NCBI GenBank assembly: GCA_019828545.1
Contig: JACVRA010000420.1
Location: forward strand, 1 to 64,000
Direction of reading: 5' to 3'
From: Paracamarosporium sp. OC-R06-R3
Lineage: Eukaryota; Ascomycota; Dothideomycetes; Pleosporales; Didymosphaeriaceae
DNA: 64,000 nt
Position 1 is the first letter of the stretch, and every line of letters starts with the position of its first letter. The notes below the pieces were generated by a model that ran no database searches, had not been told where the DNA came from, and saw only the letters and a program-made list of their open reading frames with translations. Made by a program: the position numbers and the translations under genes. Positions 6,747-58,461 of the stretch are shown here, piece by piece.

Positions 6747-6866
6747 TTGTTGGTGTTGGCCCAGCGTGGGACCCTAGTGAGTCGGTACCACACTAGAGCT
6801 GCGCACGGAATGCTATACCTTTACTAAGCGGTCAAGCTTATAGGAGACAAATGTATGGTTTGGTAA
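6747..6866. mobile_element. SINE-like element family A, copy 1 (120 bp)
   Basis: The element is bounded by the perfect 12-bp direct repeat CTCAGGACTGGG at 6735-6746 and 6867-6878. Its core (about 6765-6850) matches 58181-58262, including an identical TACCTTTACTAAGC block and a near-identical TATAGGAG(A/C)CAA block. It has no coding capacity and no terminal inverted repeats. Direct repeats of this size fit target-primed retroposition. The right-hand repeat overlaps the stop codon of the neighbouring minus-strand gene (stop at 6868-6870), so the insertion is at the very end of that gene. Calling it a retroposon is an inference from the duplications and the second copy. Confidence 0.7.
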
Positions 6867-10107: not shown

Positions 10108-10120
10108 ATAAAAGTACAAA

Positions 10121-10306
10121 CTCGCGGACCAGGGTCGAACGCCAAGCCTACGGCTTTGTGCGTTCGAACCCTGGTCCAGCCAAACTTTTTGCTCTTTTTT
10201 TTATTACGCTCTTTTTTTTTTGTACTGATCCCCAGGGGAATCACCTTTTTTGCATCATTTTTGTACCAAGGCGTATGCCAAATTTTCGTCAAAAACAACA
10301 CTCCAG
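10121..10306. mobile_element. SINE-like element family B, copy 1 (186 bp, longest)
   Basis: The element is bounded by the perfect 13-bp direct repeat ATAAAAGTACAAA at 10108-10120 and 10307-10319. The left 65 bp form a near-perfect hairpin: GGACCAGGGTCGAACGC at the left arm and GCGTTCGAACCCTGGTCC at the right. Each arm contains a TTCGAAC/TCGAAC core resembling a tRNA T-arm (pol III B box). Two T-rich tracts follow. The right 100 bp match 58352-58447, with identical CAGGGGAATCA and AAGGCGTA blocks. No coding capacity. The structure fits a short tRNA-related retroposon; the pol III promoter is inference. Confidence 0.72.
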
Positions 10307-10319
10307 ATAAAAGTACAAA

Positions 10320-10875
10320 AGTTCACTCTTTCTTACGCTCTGTATTACTCCTTTATCTCCGCAATTAGTATAGCAACGGCGCTTGATCGATTGACTACCT
10401 TGTAGATGCTCATGGAAACTGACCATCACATGCAGGATTTATCCTGCATATCTCAAATTAGCCTGCATTAGAGGTAACCAGATGAAGCATCTGCTTCAAT
10501 AACGTCGTAGTCTTTTTGTCATATTATTGACAAGCGTGGTAAAAAAGTCCGGTCTATTCCTAGGCCACCAAGGCACATTAATACTTTGGACATTCCATAA
10601 TGGCACACAGTTTCGGGTAATCGGGGCACCTTTTCAATAGATTAACTTATCCTGGAACATACCAGGATCCGCTGCATGGATGTTTATGACTCGGCCCTTG
10701 TTTGGAGATAAATAGCTTGATCAGCTCATGACCTTCCAGATCGGTGGACATATCGGAAATAGTGCCCGAGAGGTGCGTTCACTGAACAGCTTAAATGATT
10801 CTTGGGCCCAAAAGTGGAAGTTGTAGAATTCAAAGATATTTTTGATTGCTTTATTCAGTCACTACATCGTCTACG
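10320..10875 (+). promoter_or_regulatory. Upstream region of the PKS gene
   Basis: About 550 bp of AT-rich sequence between the family-B element and the PKS start codon. No ORF. A short imperfect repeat based on CAGGATTTATCCTGCATA lies near 10433-10470. No cluster-regulator binding site can be named with confidence. Confidence 0.4.
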
Positions 10876-13800
10876 ATGGATCCACCAGTACCAATAGCCG
10901 TTATTGGCATAGGCTGTCGTTTCTCTGGCGAGGCAGACTCGCCCGAGAACTTTTGGAAGCTTCTTGCTTCAGGGAAAAGTACTTGGTCCGCTATACCAGC
11001 TGAAAGATGGAACGCTTCAGCTTTTTACCATAAAGATCCTGATCAACAGGGCACACATAATACTCGAGGAGGATATTTTGTGAACCATGATGTTGCGGCA
11101 TTTGATGCCGCGTTCTGGGGAATTCCGCCGGCTGAGTGTAAGGCTATGGATCCCCAGCACCGTCTGCAGCTGGAGATGGCGTACGAGGCGCTAGAAAATG
11201 CTGGTATCACCCGAGAAGAAGTTGAGGGGTCCGACACAGCGGTCTACATTGCTACTTTCAGTGAAGACTACAAGGTCATCCAACAAAAGGATGTAAACGA
11301 TGTTCCACGATACAATGCTATCGGCATTGGGAATGCCACCTTATCTAACAGAATATCCTACCAATTAGACTTGAAGGGACCTTCCATGACCATAGGTTAG
11401 CAGACAACGCTGTTTGGTGGAACTCAGCTGATATTTGCATTTAGATGCTGGGTGCGCTGGTAGCTTGGTGGCAGTGCATCAGGCATGTCAAAGTCTCAAA
11501 CTGGGTGAATGCCATCTAGCATTAGCTGGGGGTGTGAGCCTACTCTTGAATCCCGATCAGACAGCTACGATGAGCCTTATGCGGCAAGTTTATTATACAG
11601 CCGTTGTCGACCACTGCTGATTGTAGACAGGTGTTTCAGCGAAGACGGTAGATGTTACTCATTTGATGACCGGGGATATGGCTACGGCAGAGGCGAAGGC
11701 TCAGCAATAGTAGTACTTAAGCGTTTGGATGATGCTATTAGAGATAGAGACCCCATAAGAGCAGTCATTCGTAATACTGGCGTCAACCAAGATGGAAAGA
11801 CAAACGGTATTATGGTTCCAAACAGCGATGCTCAAAGAGATTTGATAAAGTCAGTCTATATGGAAGCGCGACTGGATCCTAACGATACTCCTGTTGTGGA
11901 AGCACATGGCACTGGAACTAAGGTCGGAGATCCGATCGAAGTATCAGCAATACAGCGAGCTCTTCGGAAGCCAGGAGCTACAAACCCACCTCTTTATATT
12001 GGCTCTGTAAAGCCCAACATTGGTCATTTGGAAGCTGCGAGTGGTGTTGCCGGGCTAATCAAAGCAATCCTTATGCTTGAGCATGAGAAAATCCCTGCAA
12101 CTATCAACGTTGAGTCACTTAAGCCAAACCTTCGGTTGGCTGAGTTCAATATGATCATACCAAGCAAATTGGTAGACTGGCCGGTCAATGCTGCTCGTCG
12201 TCTTTCTCTCAGCAACTATGGTTACGGAGGAACCAATGCACACCTTATTCTTGAGGCTGCTTCGGAAATGCTTCCCAATAAACCAAATGGTGTCAACGGG
12301 CTTCTAAACAGAGTCAATGGTCTGTCAAACAGTATCGATAGTAATAGCACTACTCGAACGTCTAGAAACCCTCTAGTTGTGGCCCTATCTGCTGGGTCTA
12401 CAGTTGCTTTGTCGAAGATCGTACGAGATATAGCAAGATGGGCGTCGGCTCGATCCACATCCGAAAGCTTGCTAGAAGACTTGGCGTACACTCTTACAAT
12501 GCGTCGCTCGCCCATGCGATACCGCATTGCCTTTCCGGTGCGGTCTCTTCGCGATGTCGTATCCAATCTACAAGGAGGACCATCTTCGAATATCCAATCT
12601 GCTCTACATCCCAGTGTTATCTTTGTTTTCACTGGCCAGGGGGCTCAATGGTATGCTATGGGACGAGAGCTTATGTATATCGAGTCGCCATTCCGCAAGA
12701 GCCTTCTCCAATCGGACAGCCTACTCAGAAACATGGGCACAAGTTGGTCTCTAATCGAAGAACTTGGAAAAGACAATACTACCAGCAGAGTCGACGAAAG
12801 TGAACTGGCACAGTCTGCAACCTGCGCCATCCAAATCGCGCTTGTCGATCTGCTAGAAGAGATAGGGATCAAGCCTCATATAGTGGTCGGTCACTCGAGT
12901 GGTGAGATAGCAGCAGCATATGCTGCCAGAGTGGTGGATCAAGCATCTGCTTTGAATATTGCTCGGAGTCGTGGGACTTGCACTCAAGATCAAGTTAGGA
13001 AGGGTGCTATGCTAGCAGTGGCTTTGGGAGAAGAGCGGGCTACAACATATCTAAGCAGAACCAAAAGTGGAAAAGCCATTGTCGCGTGCGTCAACAGTCC
13101 ATCCAGTACTACTATCTCCGGGGACAGCGATGCCATTGCCGAGATGGAGATTGCAATGAAGTCCGATGGTGTATATGCACGCAAGCTCATGGTCGATAGA
13201 GCTTATCATTCACATCATATGCAAGAAGCCGGAGAAAAATACCTAGACAAAATCAAGCACTTAAAGCTCCAAGAACCATCGCCAGACATTAAATTTGTCT
13301 CATCGGTGACAGGGCAGATAAGATCGACAACCTTCACCCCTCAGTATTGGGTTGATAACCTACTATCGAAAGTAGAATTTTCTAACGCGATTCACCGGTC
13401 ATTAGAAATCAGCACGTCACGAGAGCTCAAATCAGTTCCTCAACTTATTGTAGAGATAGGACCCCACAATGCGCTTGCAGGGCCTATCCGCCAGATCTTG
13501 GCGAGCAGAGATACCGAAGACAACGTCCGCCAGAATTGTACATTGAAACGAGGGGAAAGTTCGATCGATACTCTTTCCAGTCTTGCTGCGGATTTATTTG
13601 CCCATGGTTGTGCTGTCAAGCTCGGCCTCTTTAATTCCATTATGCTCAAAGGGCATCGGCATCCCAAAGTTCTCAGTTCACTACCACCGTACGCCTGGAA
13701 CCACTCGAGTAGGTACTGGCATGAGTCGAAGCTTAGCAAAGAACACCGTTTCCGCAAGCACCCCTATCACGACCTGCTCGGTGTGCAAATCCCAGGTCGG

Positions 13801-16800
13801 AGCTCCCCGAGACCAGTGTGGCGGCATATCCTCAACACGAAGAGATTGCCGTGGCTACAAGAACACACGGTCAATGGTGAAATCGTTTTCCCTGCGGCAG
13901 GATACATATCAATGGTCTTGGAAGCCTTGCGACAGGTCACGCAGAGTCCAGAGAAGCCTGAGAAAGTATTCCAGTACGAACTTAAAGATGTGAAATTCAT
14001 CACCCCATTGGCGGTACCAGAGTCTGGAGTGTCAGTGGAGATTCAACTTCAACTCATACCAACAGAGGGCTCATCTTGGGATGATTTTGTAGTGTATGGT
14101 ACAGAAGAGGACGGCGTTTCCATCGAGTATTGTCGAGGCTCAGCGATGGCCTCTCTCGAATCGGACGCCGACGAAGTTGAATGTTATCGAGAATCGTCAC
14201 TCACCTGCGATGGCTATCTGCAATTGTTAGAGCGTGTAAGAGCCCTACCATCAGTGCCACTTGACATTCCTGGCTTCTACGAGGTTGTGCGAGCGAAAGG
14301 AAACTCGTACGGCCCGCATTTCACATGCGTGAAGGAAATCCTCGTAAAGGGAAAAGAAGCCCTAAGTACATTCGAAATCCCGGAAATCTCGGAATGTATG
14401 CCTGAAGGTATGATGCAACCTCATGTGATACATCCAGCCGTGTTGGATGGCTTTTTGCACCCTGTCCTCGCATTGTCGGAGCAAAAGCAAATCGATGGGT
14501 CGGTGGTCACTGCATCCGTTCAGAACATCGTCGTCTCGCCTCTCGTGAAAAATACTGCTGGCACGCAACTCATCTCCTGTACCAAACTCGCAGATCAGTG
14601 GAACCAGGGCTGTACTGCCGACATAGACGCCTTCCAGACCAGTGCTTCTGGCCACCCGCAGCCTATCGTGCATGTCCACGGTCTTCGAGTACAAGAGATC
14701 GGACGCGCAAGCGTATCGCAAAAGCCCCCCCAAAGGAACCTCTTCTATGCACAGAATTGGGGTCTGGATGCTGATTATGTAACTCGGCAGGACATTGACC
14801 CCTACGAAGCAGACACGGATATCATCTCCGCAGAACAGGCGGCCAAGTTGCTTGTCTTGAATCAGATTACTTCTATCTTTATTGATTCAAATATTAGGGA
14901 ATTAGAGCAGAATAGTCAACTTAAAATACACAGCCGCTACGAACGCTTAGTGGATTGGATGCGGAGATTCCAAGCCTCACAAGAGTCCAAGGACCTGGCC
15001 ACGTCGATATCGCAAGATTCCAGTAAAGATGAAGTTCTGAATAAATCGAGTACTCTCGGAGTTGAAGGCGAAATTCTCGCCCGAATCGGAAGGAACATGG
15101 TTTCGATCGTCACTGGCGAGGTAGAACCATTGAGCTTGTTCACAGAAGAGGGCCTGTTCTGGCGCTTATATGCAGATGATGCATCTGTAAGATGTTATGG
15201 CTATGCCATTGAATACCTCCATCGGCTTGTATTCAAGAACCCGAACATGGCTGTGTTGGAACTCGGCGCCGGGACTGGTGGAGCTACGGAACCTATATTG
15301 CAATCTTTTGCAGCGGACACGTTTCCATTCGACTCATATGACTTCACGGATGTTTCCGGTTCCTTTTTTGAAAGATCTAGAGAGCGCCTTAAGAAATGGG
15401 AACACAACCTGCGATTTCGCAAACTTGATCTTCAGAATGATCCCATCAGCCAGGGCTTTCAAGAGGGCTCCTACGATTTGATCATCGCTTCTAACGTTCT
15501 ACATGTCGCACATTCGATTGATAAGGCGTTGTCTCAAATTCGGAGGTTGCTCAGACCGGGAGGCAGGGTTCTGATGATTGAGTTTACAGTCACAGTGCCC
15601 TACATAAACTTTGCCATAGGTGTCTTGCCTGGATGGTGGGGTGCACAAGACGGTCGAGTTAACGGTCCACTAATATCAGAGGAGGAATGGAACTCAAAAC
15701 TTGAGCGAAATGGTCTGGGAGGCATCTCTGTTGTGGGTAAAGACTTTGAGGGGCCTGCACACCGTGCCTCAATGATCGTATCGAAGCCGATTCCGGTCAA
15801 CAATACTCCAAACAGCAACCTCGCACCGTTAGAGATTCTATTACCTCCCTGCTGGGAGACCACACAGCCTGCAATGGTACAAGACTTAGTAGTCGAGATG
15901 GAAAATTCAGGCCGCCATGTCACTACAGCATCCCTATGGAATATAAACACTTCGCCCGAGAAGATTTATATGGTTCTAGATAATGGAGAGGTGCCCATTC
16001 TTGGAGGAAGTGATTCCGAGCTGTTCAAATCAGTCACACACCTTGCCACAAGTCCCATATCTCTACTCTGGGTAAGCGTCCAGGACGAAAGCTCGGCGGC
16101 CAACAATCCAAAAAAATCGTTGATTCTAGGTTTCCTACGCGGTGCTCGAACCGAAAACAGGTCCTTGCGAGCTGTCTCTCTGAATGTTCAAGACATAATC
16201 TCTGACCGACAGTCACGTGAACATTTCGCCCAAGTGGTCTCTAGAATTGTGAATACCATACGTCTCCCAGACGAGGAACAACCAACTATTGAATTCGATT
16301 GCATTCTAAAAGAAGGCCAGATCCATATCGAACGCGTCCTACCTGATAAGCAGCTCCGCGACGGGGTCGCTAAAGCCTTAGGATCGCCTGCCCCTGAGCG
16401 CCAGAACTTCCATCAGACTGATAGACCACTCAGATTATCCCTAAAGAATGCGCGTTTTATAGACAAGATCAGGTTTGAAGTGGATAAGTCCATCCAGGGC
16501 TCACTTACGCCAGGGTACGTAGAGATCCGCGTACAAGCCTTTGGTGTCAACTTCAAGGATTTTTTGATAGCCAGCGGTCACACCAAGAACAAGATGAATA
16601 TGACTGGAGAATTTGCTGGTGTCGTCATAGACGTAGGCGCAAATCTGCAGGGAACATACAAGATTGGTGATCGCGTATGCGGTTTCGGGGCGACTCCCTA
16701 CGCAAGTCGGATTCGTATGCGGGGGAATGCTATTGCCAAACTTCCCTCCCACATATCGACATTTGCCGGAGCAGCAATTCCACTTGTTTTTGCGACAGCG

Positions 16801-19800
16801 TATCACTCGCTTATTGATGTTGCACGCCTTGAGAAGGGACAGAAAGTCTTGATTCACTCTGCTGCAGGCGGCATTGGTCAAGCAGCCATCACAATCGCGC
16901 ACCATATCGGCGCAGAAGTCTTTGCGACAGTGAGCAATGCGTCAAAAAAGAGTTTCCTGGCGAAGGAGTTCGGGATACCCGAGGACCATATCTTTTCAAG
17001 CAAACTAAGGACTTTCAAGGAAGGCATCAACCGCTTGACAAACGGTGCAGGTGTCGATGTAGTCCTTAATTCCCTCGCAGGGCAGATTCTCCAAGATTCT
17101 TTGGCTTGTGTGTCGAGATTTGGCACATTCGTCGAGATTGGCAAAACAGATATTCACTCAGGATCACGTCTCTCCTTGGCACCCTTTGATTCAAGCATCA
17201 CGCTAGCATCAGTCGATCTCTCATTACTATCTGAACACAAACCGGCCAAGACAGGCCAATTGGTCCAGAAAGTCGTATCACTCGTCTCTGAAGGTCAATT
17301 GAGGCTACCAAGCTTTATAATCCGACCACTCGAAGATTTGAGATCAGTCTTCATATCTCTTCAAAGTCGAACCCACATGGGCAAATTCGTGCTCGACGCG
17401 GGTGAAAATGCCTTGGTGGAAGCGGCCCCGAATAAGCTCAAGGTCCCACTATCCGATAACGCAACCTATGTAATTGCAGGTGGAAGAAGTGGCCTTGGTT
17501 TCGAGCTAGGGAAAAGCTTAGCTAACCATGGTGCAAGACATCTAGTGTTCTTATCTCGCCGTGCTGTGACTCTAGAAGAAAAGGTCCAGGTTTCGGATAT
17601 ATTCCGGAGCATGCAAATCGATGTGCAGTTGCTAAGTTGCGACATCACTAGTGAAACCAGTCTTGAGGAAAATTTGTCGGAGTGTTTGAAGAACATGCCT
17701 CCTGTTCGAGGCTTAATCCAATCGACCTTGGGTATCCGCCACCGTATGGTACACACTATGGAATTAGACGACTTTTCATTCGGCATTCGTTCAAAGGTCG
17801 ATGGAACTGAGAACCTACTCAAGGTTCTTTGTAATCATCCCTTAGACTTCTGTTTGATGATGTCCTCACTCATTGGTGGGACGAGCGGCACTACTGGTCA
17901 ATCTAATTATGCCGCTTCAAACGCATATATGACAGACCTTGCTTCTTTCCAGAGCAAGAAAGGAACTCGCTTTATCGCAGTGTGTCCTGGTCTTGTCGAG
18001 GATATCGGTTACTTGGTGGATAATGACAGTGCAGTCACTTTTTCACAGCGACAGGGCTTCTTGAATATGAAAGGAGAGGACATTGTCGCAATGGTGGATT
18101 ATGCGCTAAGTGAAGAGGGAATTCGACGCCAGGCAAATGTACTCACATCGGGCTTTGACCGTCAGTCCTGGATTGACTGCAGTAGACAAGATGCCTTGGA
18201 CAACCCTTTGTTCTCCCATCTTCCCCTCAATAATGAAACCGCTGGGGTCAATGCCTCAGAGACGACAACTAGAAGCATCCACGATGTACTGGCCAATGCA
18301 GCCTCGAAAAGCGAGGCAGAGACTTTGATTGCTCAAGCAATCGCCAAGAAAGCGCAAACGCTTGTCGCAAGCGACAGTGACATTGATACATCCTCCAAGA
18401 TGGGGGATCTTGGTATTGATTCACTAACGGTAGTTGAGATCAAGAATTGGTTTGCAGAGACATTCCAGGTTCGAATTCAGACAAAAGAAATATACGCCAC
18501 ACCGAGCATCGCTCACTTGGCGGCCGTTGTAGCTACCCGCTCGCCCAAGTTGGTTTCGAAGATTTCTCATGGCCCTGTAAGTAGCTCTCCTTCGATTTAT
18601 CAATTCAAAATGTCGCCAAAGTTCTTTCACGTCAGTTGCTAATGCTATCAGGAAATCGAGAATGCTACAAAAGACTCTCCTTCAAACAGTGTAGCTCATC
18701 CAGAATCGACAGTTGAAGTGAACGACAAGCCAGACCTACCGAAACAACCTCTTCCAGATCTAGATTCAACTTTAGATCTTTGGCTTACAGCCGTCAGTGC
18801 TGTCTTGTCCGACGCGGAATACAAAGAAGCCACGAAGTTAGTCGCAGAGTTCCGTGTTCCAGGAGGCGCAGGACGCAAGCTCCAAGCCCGGCTGACTACA
18901 CTTGCGAACGATCCCACCATTGACAACTGGCAAGAGCAAATGTACAACAGGTTTTATTATCTAAGATTGCGGGACCCTCTGGTACCACGACACAATGTCG
19001 CCGGTACACACCTCAACACACATTCGCACTCGGCGGCGGAAATAGCAGCTATGCTGTCTTATGCATGCCATATATTCTGTCGCCAGCTTGAGGAGGGGAA
19101 CGTAGAGTACCAGATCGAGCGAAGCCAAAAACTTGAAAGAAGCCAGTACCAGCATCTTTTCAACGCAACAAGAGAACCTCGACAGGGCGAAGACGTACTG
19201 ATGAAGTACCCTGGTAACAACTATCTAGTTGCGTTCCGGCGTGGTCGTGCTTTCAAGATTGAGCTCGATGCTTCGCTTGGTGTCCTCAAGTCGCATTTCC
19301 AGAACATCATCGACTCGGCTTGCGAGCCCGAGTCATGGGTCGGTGTACTTACAACGGATGATCGTGATTCTTGGGCTGCAAACCGCGAACTACTGTGCGA
19401 CGTGAGTGACGAAAACGCCGAGTTGCTCCGTACCATTGAAGCGGCGGAATTTGTGGTATATCTCGATGATGCGAGGCCAGAGACAGGCCGTGAGCGAGCG
19501 AACCAATTTCTGTTGCACGGATTCAACAGATGGAGCGACAAGACGGTGCAGTTGGCGATTTGCGATAACGGATGGTCTGCAGCCATTGGAGAGCACTCTA
19601 TGATTGACGGGTACGCGATGAAAAGACTCCATATTTTGTTGCGCGAGGCTATCGAGCACCACACTGCAAGCGAACCGGTCCAGCAAACTCCCTTGCCCAA
19701 CTCATACGTTTTTGAGACCAATCCAGAGCTAGAGGGCAATATTCTTGCAGCACGTGCTGGGCTAGAGGAGCGTGCGTCTCTATACGGGTTCGTCGGTTTC

Positions 19801-20409
19801 GAGGTGCCAACAATATCCTTTGATCTTTTCCGCAATTACAAGATATCTCCAATGTCTGGCATGCAAATTATCATCCATTTAGCCAGCAAGAGCTACTTTG
19901 GTTTCAACCCTATCGGACACGAATCAGTTGGGTTGGCGCATTTCCGAAAAGGGCGTTTGGAACTCAGCCATACGTTGTGGCCTGCCGTCAAACAATTCTG
20001 CGACGCTGCATCAGACAAAGAAACGTCAAAGGAAGCACTTCGACGCATGTTTCTCGAAGCTGCCAAAGTCCATGCCAACAACCTGATGAGAAGCAGCCAA
20101 GGTTACGGCTTGGATCGCCACCTGCTCTGCTTGGAATGGAGCGTCGAAGACGGCGAAGACATACCTGAATTGTTCACGAGTGATATCTACAAACGCTCGA
20201 GGCCAAACATGCTTGTAACAGATTGCCTTGAAGCAGGTATCGTCGAAACCTTTTCGGTGCCGTTCCACCCCGAAGGTCTTTGGGTGCATTTTGAGTCGGA
20301 TGATAACGGAGTGAAATTCTCATGTATGGGAAAGCCAGAAAAGATAGAGGGGTTCGAGAAATATGTTAAGGAGAGTGCATTGCTTGTACGAGATATCTTG
20401 AAAGGGTAA
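10876..20409 (+). CDS. Highly reducing type I polyketide synthase with C-terminal carnitine-acyltransferase domain
   Basis: Join 10876-11395, 11445-11583, 11631-18576, 18652-20409 gives 3,120 residues. The start is ATG 10876 (MDPPVPIAVIGIGCRF); the frame is open upstream but has no other ATG. Domains in order, with visible key residues: KS (Cys177 in DAGCAGSL, then VEAHGTGT and NIGHLE), AT (GQGAQW; Ser642 in GHSSGE), DH (His965 in LQEHTVNG, and HPAVLDGF), C-methyltransferase (LELGAGTGG, about 1430), ER (HSAAGGIGQ, about 1966), KR (GGRSGLG; Tyr2313 in SNYAASN), ACP (Ser2484 in LGIDSL), and a carnitine O-acyltransferase-like domain (His2850 in GEHSMIDG). All catalytic residues I can check are present. 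It should make a fully or variably reduced, possibly C-methylated chain. In characterised relatives such as the Trichoderma virens enzyme Tv6-931, this last domain transfers the chain to an alcohol acceptor. The second intron is 47 bp and starts with GC. Product unknown. Confidence 0.93.
11584..11630 (+). other. GC-AG intron in the ketosynthase coding region
   Basis: The donor GCAAGT at 11584 and acceptor ACAG ending at 11630 are the only pair that joins ...TATMSLMR to CFSEDGRCYSFDD. That restores the exact spacing between the MS motif and the DGR-Y-FD motif seen in other HR-PKS ketosynthases. Without removal the frame meets a TGA at 11618-11620. No GT donor nearby gives an open frame. Length is 47 bp. 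Confidence 0.8.
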
Positions 20410-58166: not shown

Positions 58167-58272
58167 GCGCCAAGTATGTGACCCTAGCGAGTTGGCTCCA
58201 CAGCGGAATTGCGCACCGAATGTTGTACCTTTACTAAGCTACCAAGCCTATAGGAGCCAAGGACTATTGACA
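58167..58272. mobile_element. SINE-like element family A, copy 2 (106 bp)
   Basis: Bounded by the perfect 10-bp direct repeat AGTGGAGTTT at 58157-58166 and 58273-58282. It matches the family-A copy at 6747-6866 over about 80 bp and starts about 11 bp later than that copy at its left end. Differences from copy 1 are mostly transitions (C/T, G/A). No coding capacity. Confidence 0.7.
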
Positions 58273-58349
58273 AGTGGAGTTTTAGTAGTTATTGTAGACA
58301 TATAGTTTAGTAAGAATGGTAAGGGTTCATGTCTTAATAGGTAATATAG

Positions 58350-58447
58350 CTACGCTCTTTTTTGTGCTGATTCGCAGGGGAATCATATTTTTTGTATCAC
58401 TTTTTGTCTCAAGGCGTACGCCGAATTTTGGTCAAACCATCACCCCA
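58350..58447. mobile_element. SINE-like element family B, copy 2 (98 bp, truncated)
   Basis: Bounded by the perfect 14-bp direct repeat AATAGGTAATATAG at 58336-58349 and 58448-58461. It corresponds to the right half of the 186-bp copy at 10121-10306 and lacks the left hairpin entirely. The shared right end with a missing left end and a different target duplication is what 5' truncation during reverse transcription would leave. Confidence 0.75.
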
Positions 58448-58461
58448 AATAGGTAATATAG

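What the first reader, a model, noticed from the sequence alone, without database searches (positions are those of the whole stretch)
10108..10319. Family-B SINE-like retroposon, longest copy, with perfect 13-bp target duplication
Seen: ATAAAAGTACAAA at both edges of a 186-bp insert, which starts with a hairpin whose arms carry TTCGAAC cores and continues with T-rich tracts. A second, shorter copy exists 48 kb away with its own 14-bp duplication. Established: 7-20 bp target duplications and tRNA-like heads are hallmarks of SINEs. Inference: this is a small non-autonomous retroposon, possibly undescribed.
Basis: partly seen in the sequence, partly recalled or inferred. Interest (0 to 1): 0.8.

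Follow-up and report, generated by a model that had tools for sequence, protein, structure and literature searches.

The report
Fungal short retroposon with fixed tail
A short non-coding DNA element in a fungal genome has been copied to dozens of places, apparently through RNA, always keeping its last stretch and losing varying amounts of its front; it looks like a real mobile element, but its supposed transfer-RNA head does not hold up.

Summary
In detail: a 186-bp insert (10121-10306) between perfect 13-bp repeats, and a second copy (58350-58447) with perfect 14-bp repeats. The same 43.1-Mb genome holds 76 tail matches against 0 for the reversed pattern; 85 tail-bearing hits were studied. 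Flanking repeats scoring >=8 occur in 53 of 85 hits against 1.8% of 1020 swapped-flank controls; >=11 in 30 of 85 against 0 of 1020. Of those 53, 46 repeats begin AT, usually just after the constant end CTCCAG. The 5' end varies. This fits target-primed reverse transcription, probably by LINE enzymes acting in trans. The finding's copy is itself 5'-shortened: four others span 320-628 bp. The tRNA head is not supported: no Rfam tRNA hit on three longer copies, alignment to 20 own tRNAs near chance, and runs of >=5 T downstream in 17 of 17 longer copies. Box A/B-like motifs do exist. 5' ends pile up in the T-rich block and at the hairpin's foot, as if the enzyme falls off there. No partner LINE was found. 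The paper searches made found no description; no repeat database was available.

The parts
10108..10120 (+). left target-site duplication ATAAAAGTACAAA
   Evidence: exact match to 10307-10319, only these two places in the window
10121..10306 (+). the 186-bp retroposon copy, 5'-shortened relative to longer copies
   Evidence: 42 matches in own genome; longer copies
10124..10180 (+). hairpin; this copy begins at its 5' foot
   Evidence: RNA fold; 5 of the 11 copies reaching this far start at family positions 193-200
10161..10171 (+). box-B-like motif CGTTCGAACCC (one mismatch to the recalled consensus GGTTCGANNCC); the box-A-like partner of longer copies is lost here
   Evidence: motif scan of the family consensus and reading
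10186..10221 (+). T-rich block; most 5' ends of other copies fall in the matching region
   Evidence: 34 of the 49 copies reaching this far start at family positions 251-300
10226..10243 (+). small palindrome TGATCCCCAGGGGAATCA
   Evidence: sequence
10244..10306 (+). conserved tail ending CTCCAG
   Evidence: tail pattern: 76 matches against 0 for the reversed pattern
10307..10319 (+). right target-site duplication
58336..58349 (+). left duplication AATAGGTAATATAG of the second copy
58350..58447 (+). second, 98-bp, more diverged copy (about 80% identical), starting inside the T-rich region
58448..58461 (+). right duplication of the second copy

Best explanation
It is a 5'-shortened copy of a non-coding, non-autonomous retroposon. 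An RNA ending with the ~120-nt tail is taken up in trans by a LINE-type endonuclease/reverse transcriptase, which nicks a T|ATA-like site, primes at the CTCCAG end (perhaps helped by an A-T match) and copies from the 3' end (target-primed reverse transcription). The enzyme often leaves the template in the U-rich block or at the hairpin, so most copies are short tails; a few run through and carry up to 628 bp. Shown: many copies, flanking duplications above control, constant 3' end, variable 5' ends, clustering of 5' ends. Inferred: the LINE partner, the U-rich block and hairpin as the cause of the stops, and a pol II origin of the RNA.
For: 76 tail matches against 0 for the control pattern; duplication score >=8 in 53 of 85 against 1.8% of 1020, >=11 in 30 of 85 against 0 of 1020; 46 of 53 duplications begin AT and 35 of 53 lie exactly after the tail end; T|ATA preference, 36, 42, 41 and 28 of 47; four long copies with flanking repeats; 5' ends concentrated at family positions 251-300 and 193-200; upstream flanks of most copies unrelated to one another.
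Against: No partner LINE with this tail was found. 32 of 85 hits have no duplication scoring >=8 in the window searched, though three of these (L003, L006, L007) do have one farther upstream. The hairpin shows no covariation above shuffles. Per base travelled, the hairpin body is not a worse stop than the tail (0.0053 against 0.0028 per nt). Box A/B-like motifs argue for a pol III past.
Confidence: 0.62

Rival explanations
1. Orphan LINE tails: the copies are 5'-truncated 3' ends of an autonomous LINE whose coding part is missing from the assembly or destroyed by repeat-induced point mutation (RIP); short tails survive because they are too short to be attacked.
For: 5' truncation with duplications is typical of LINEs; copies up to 628 bp; 17 of 20 RT places read look like Gypsy elements full of stops, as RIP would leave them (my reading); longest copy L007 has RIP-type changes at 19 of 57 sites.
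Against: The longest copies show no long frame on the plus strand by eye. The two LINE-like RT loci lack the tail in about 1 kb (C301, then Ns) and about 2 kb (C99) beyond the fragment or frame. No tail match lies within 60 kb of any of the 41 RT matches (coordinates compared by eye). Apart from the head-bearing copies and a few repeat-in-repeat cases, upstream flanks are not shared. Some short copies also carry many RIP-type changes, e.g. L028 12 of 18.
Confidence: 0.25
2. Canonical tRNA-derived SINE transcribed by pol III from boxes A and B and mobilised by a LINE.
For: Box-A-like and box-B-like motifs 52 nt apart in the family consensus, matched by 2 of 3000 Markov sequences (thresholds set after the fact); TSDs and small size.
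Against: No Rfam tRNA hit at E<=10 on L004, L104, L105, none at gathering level on six sources; tRNA alignment reached by 36 of 500 shuffles; T runs >=5 in the last 130 nt in 17 of 17 longer copies, the first starting 14 nt after box B in the consensus; 77 of 85 hits start downstream of box A; long copies extend far upstream of the expected pol III start.
Confidence: 0.1
3. A foldback or miniature DNA transposon, or local duplication.
For: A strong hairpin lies at one end and direct repeats flank the insert.
Against: One end is constant and the other variable; duplications run 8-18 bp; copies lie on many contigs.
Confidence: 0.03

Closest known systems
Mg-SINE, MGL LINE and MINE chimeras of Magnaporthe (PMC2104539; parts 1 and 2 of 5 and passages seen)
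   Same: Fungal retroposons with 10-20 bp duplications, 5'-truncated 3' parts, a SINE that shares its 3' end with a LINE, and fusions of different transcripts; hairpins were predicted at template-switch sites.
   Different: No LINE with the same 3' end was found here, and no sequence comparison with Mg-SINE, MGL or WEIRD was made (their sequences were not at hand). Whether joins in L003, L030 and L046 are template switches is open.
AfuSINE2 and AfuSINE3 of Aspergillus fumigatus (PMC5063351; abstract and one part of a section seen)
   Same: Small fungal elements (140-493 bp) with 4-14 bp duplications.
   Different: Those are assigned to tRNA or 5S heads and are in low copy number; here the tRNA test fails and there are dozens of copies with a shared tail.
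I-type LINEs of Cochliobolus heterostrophus, also Pleosporales (PMC4112212; passages seen)
   Same: A possible kind of partner enzyme in this fungal order.
   Different: Those LINEs carry AAT tandem repeats; this tail ends in CTCCAG, at most with one or two extra AG.

Membership tests
SINE (pol III-derived, LINE-mobilised) | head derived from tRNA, 5S or 7SL RNA | tested here: not met
   Rfam: 0 matches at gathering level on six sources, no tRNA, 5S or 7SL match at E<=10 on three longer copies; tRNA alignment 36 of 500 shuffles
SINE (pol III-derived, LINE-mobilised) | internal pol III promoter that makes the mobile RNA | tested here: inconclusive
   Box A/B-like motifs present (2 of 3000 simulations), but T runs >=5 downstream in 17 of 17 longer copies; no transcript data
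SINE (pol III-derived, LINE-mobilised) | target-site duplications of varied sequence | tested here: met
   53 of 85 against 1.8% of 1020 controls
SINE (pol III-derived, LINE-mobilised) | 3' end shared with a partner LINE | tested here: not met
   not found at the two LINE-like RT loci that were read; C301 is cut by Ns, and 21 of the 41 RT matches were not read
LINE (autonomous) | reverse transcriptase and endonuclease genes | tested here: inconclusive
   no long plus-strand frame seen by eye in the longest copy, but all copies may be 5'-truncated
Product of target-primed reverse transcription | constant 3' end, variable 5' end, duplications | tested here: met
Miniature DNA transposon | two fixed ends with terminal inverted repeats and fixed-length duplication | tested here: not met
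   5' ends vary; duplications 8-18 bp

The most novel reading that the evidence does not exclude
The mobile unit is not a gene-derived SINE but a portable 3' tag: a ~120-nt tail that lets a LINE enzyme copy whatever RNA ends with it. A pol II, partly antisense, non-coding transcript supplies the 5' parts, and the internal joins in L003, L030 and L046 reflect template jumps or splicing. The U-rich block and hairpin keep most copies below the length that repeat-induced point mutation attacks, so stalling protects the family in a genome where longer retroelements are ruined.
Probability: 0.15. Interest if true: 0.65.

Novelty: new variant of a known kind. Interest (0 to 1): 0.42.

Why it matters
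The fungal SINE paper seen here defines its families by tRNA or 5S heads. This family offers dozens of insertion events with flanking duplications, so it records where a fungal retroposition enzyme cuts DNA and where it leaves its template, and it gives a test of whether short retroposons escape repeat-induced point mutation. The copy near a polyketide-synthase-like gene could serve as a strain marker.

Tried and rejected
tRNA origin: 62 tRNA matches listed, 20 fetched (chosen mostly for length) and aligned; not significant, and Rfam silent. LINE partner: RVT_1 and PF14529 (0 matches) searched; 20 of the 41 RT places fetched and read; Pfam run on fragments of five of them and on the C99 frame (RVT_1 in five, none in C99); C301 and C99 followed downstream and used as queries; no tail. 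A RIP-converted tail as query found 3 places, two already known and L107. The exact tail pattern gives 0 in viral and 0 in prokaryote contigs, which says nothing about fungi. Hairpin covariation: not above shuffles. Paper searches with no hit; one search gave two papers that I judged off topic from the listing.

Rows dropped: of 117 merged family hits, 85 were kept; the rest were repeats of the same place or did not reach the tail. Two of the 85 are the two tails of one tandem locus (L030). One search looks for duplications only near the alignment start, so L003, L006 and L007 count there as misses; one search adds them back. Copies carrying a large internal deletion (L046) enter by their tail piece alone.

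Full report
What is there. Window 10108-10319 holds a 186-bp insert flanked by ATAAAAGTACAAA on both sides; a second, 98-bp copy with 14-bp duplications lies at 58350-58447. The window is contig C202 of a 43,091,187-bp assembly in 337 contigs. A P-type ATPase of the window is 91% identical to one of Paraphaeosphaeria sporulosa; the next hit that names an organism is 83% (Corynespora cassiicola), so the host is a Pleosporales fungus, probably in or near the family of Paraphaeosphaeria (Didymosphaeriaceae, recalled). The insert lies about 0.5 kb upstream of a frame that reads like a polyketide synthase (10846 on) and downstream of exon-like frames that read like a membrane protein (both labels are my reading of translations).

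Copies. The 212-bp query gives 42 matches in the own genome, itself included, with 40 of 89 candidates scored. A 25-base tail pattern with up to 3 mismatches gives 76 matches, 40 and 36 on the two strands, and none for the reversed control. From the fetched loci 85 tail-bearing hits were kept: 22 at 92% identity or more to the long copy L004, 14 at 85-92%, 49 lower. Copy ends differ (AACACTCCAGAT, AACACTCCACAT, ATCACCCCAGAT), which suggests several active sources.

Insertion signature. For each hit the best direct repeat between the 3' junction and the alignment start was scored and compared with 1020 swapped flank pairs. Scores of 8 or more: 53 of 85 against 1.8%; 11 or more: 30 of 85 against 0 of 1020. 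Among the 53, 46 duplications begin AT and 35 begin exactly after the tail end; lengths run 8-18 bp. Around the site the preferred bases are T|ATA (36, 42, 41 and 28 of 47); some of the A-T may belong to the element's end rather than the target. A few junctions have an extra AG. This is the anatomy of target-primed reverse transcription.

The element is longer than the finding. Four copies carry more 5' sequence inside their own duplications: L003 320 bp, L004 377, L006 423 (one mismatch in the repeat), L007 628. Ten places match a head query. An alignment of 11 sequences shows internal joins: L003 lacks over 100 nt, L046 carries inserted repeats and lacks the T-rich block, and L030 has two tails in tandem. 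L101 has the head without the tail; L030 and L101 share about 320 bp more (78%) further upstream. The outermost 5' part of L007 matches locus L106 in a 53-bp patch (83%) and, by eye, in further patches; on the minus strand peptide-like segments look alike. That suggests antisense origin, but it is a reading, not a test.

tRNA head. Rfam finds nothing at gathering level on six sources and no tRNA at E<=10 on three longer copies; the best alignment to 20 tRNA genes of the same genome is reached by 36 of 500 shuffled heads. The family consensus does have a box-A-like motif at 182 and a box-B-like motif at 234, a pair that 2 of 3000 Markov sequences match, with thresholds chosen after seeing it. 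But runs of five or more T lie in the last 130 nt of 17 of 17 longer copies, and in the consensus the first, of six T, begins at 258, 14 nt after box B, so a pol III transcript would be expected to end there and miss the tail. The RNA that moves is therefore more likely a pol II transcript; this is inference.

Where copies begin. Of 56 copies with supported duplications (53 plus L003, L006, L007), 7 of 56 begin at family positions 301-345; 34 of the 49 reaching further begin at 251-300 (T-rich block); 4 of 15 at 201-250 (hairpin body); 5 of 11 at 193-200 (5' foot of the hairpin), p about 0.0001 against a uniform spread of the 11 (window width chosen after the fact). In the 193-330 range, 18 copies within 20 nt has p 0.006; the hairpin body holds 4 where a uniform spread would put 18, but per base travelled it is not depleted (0.0053 per nt against 0.0028 at 301-345): few copies get that far. 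The finding's copy begins at the foot. The hairpin is stable and kept in 12 copies (92.4% of pair cells, 11-41% when slid) but shows no covariation above shuffles. A reverse transcriptase that leaves weak rU:dA stretches and stops at hairpins would give this pattern. In Magnaporthe, hairpins were predicted at LINE template-switch sites (PMC2104539, passages).

Partner. Of 41 RVT_1 matches, 20 were read: by motif (recalled) 17 look like Gypsy RT with stops, one like telomerase, one like a LINE RT (C301), one is unclear; Pfam on fragments of five of them says only RVT_1. The C301 protein finds one further locus, C99 (36%), and the C99 protein finds only itself and C301. The tail is absent from about 1 kb beyond the C301 fragment, after which the sequence reads N, and from about 2 kb beyond the C99 frame. 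PF14529 gives no match. So the partner is missing, lost, in a gap, or among the 21 RT matches not read.

Mutation. Copies close to the family consensus show few RIP-type changes (L001 0 of 23, L002 0 of 23, L004 3 of 60); L007 shows 19 of 57, but so do some short copies, e.g. L028 12 of 18. That shortness protects the family is possible, not shown.

Known work. Seen: PMC2104539 (parts 1 and 2 of 5, passages), PMC5063351 (outline, abstract, one part of one section), PMC4112212 (passages); all others only in listings. None of what I saw describes this sequence; no repeat database was searchable. I file it as a new variant of LINE-mobilised non-autonomous retroposons and not as a SINE member, because the head feature was tested and not met.

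Mended: the length read beyond the C301 fragment (about 1 kb, not 1.9), the hairpin depletion (now given also per base travelled), and post-hoc thresholds are marked. The odds set here are those of the checked report; the returned draft had its confidence fields misplaced.

Noticed in passing
window 6749-6850 and 58169-58260: A second repeat family, about 102 bp with nearly constant ends: 40 matches scored of 70 candidates in the genome; the two window copies are 77% alike. One lies about 90 bp upstream of the second retroposon copy.
   Followed up: partly
L101 (G000:C21:157150-157950): Carries about 119 nt of the retroposon's head and more upstream sequence shared with L030, but no tail; it might be a source locus or a relic.
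   Followed up: partly
L106 (G000:C79:150200-151600) and the 5' part of L007: Patchy DNA similarity, with peptide-like similarity on the minus strand, as if the 5' part were antisense to a gene family.
   Followed up: partly
L149 (G000:C99:21600-25300) and L145 (G000:C301:11400-12300): The only two LINE-like RT loci that the protein searches linked (36% and 33% identity); the C99 frame of 539 aa has no stop in the part matched.
   Followed up: partly
20 RT places, L128-L147: Most look like Gypsy elements with many TAA and TAG stops, as repeat-induced point mutation would leave them (my reading).
   Followed up: no
window 10846-20409: A polyketide-synthase-like gene followed by an acyltransferase-like frame, so the insert lies at the edge of what may be a metabolite gene cluster (labels are my reading).
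   Followed up: no
L030 (G000:C24:394454-397584): Two tails in tandem within one long copy, plus a third tail-bearing hit about 1 kb further on.
   Followed up: no
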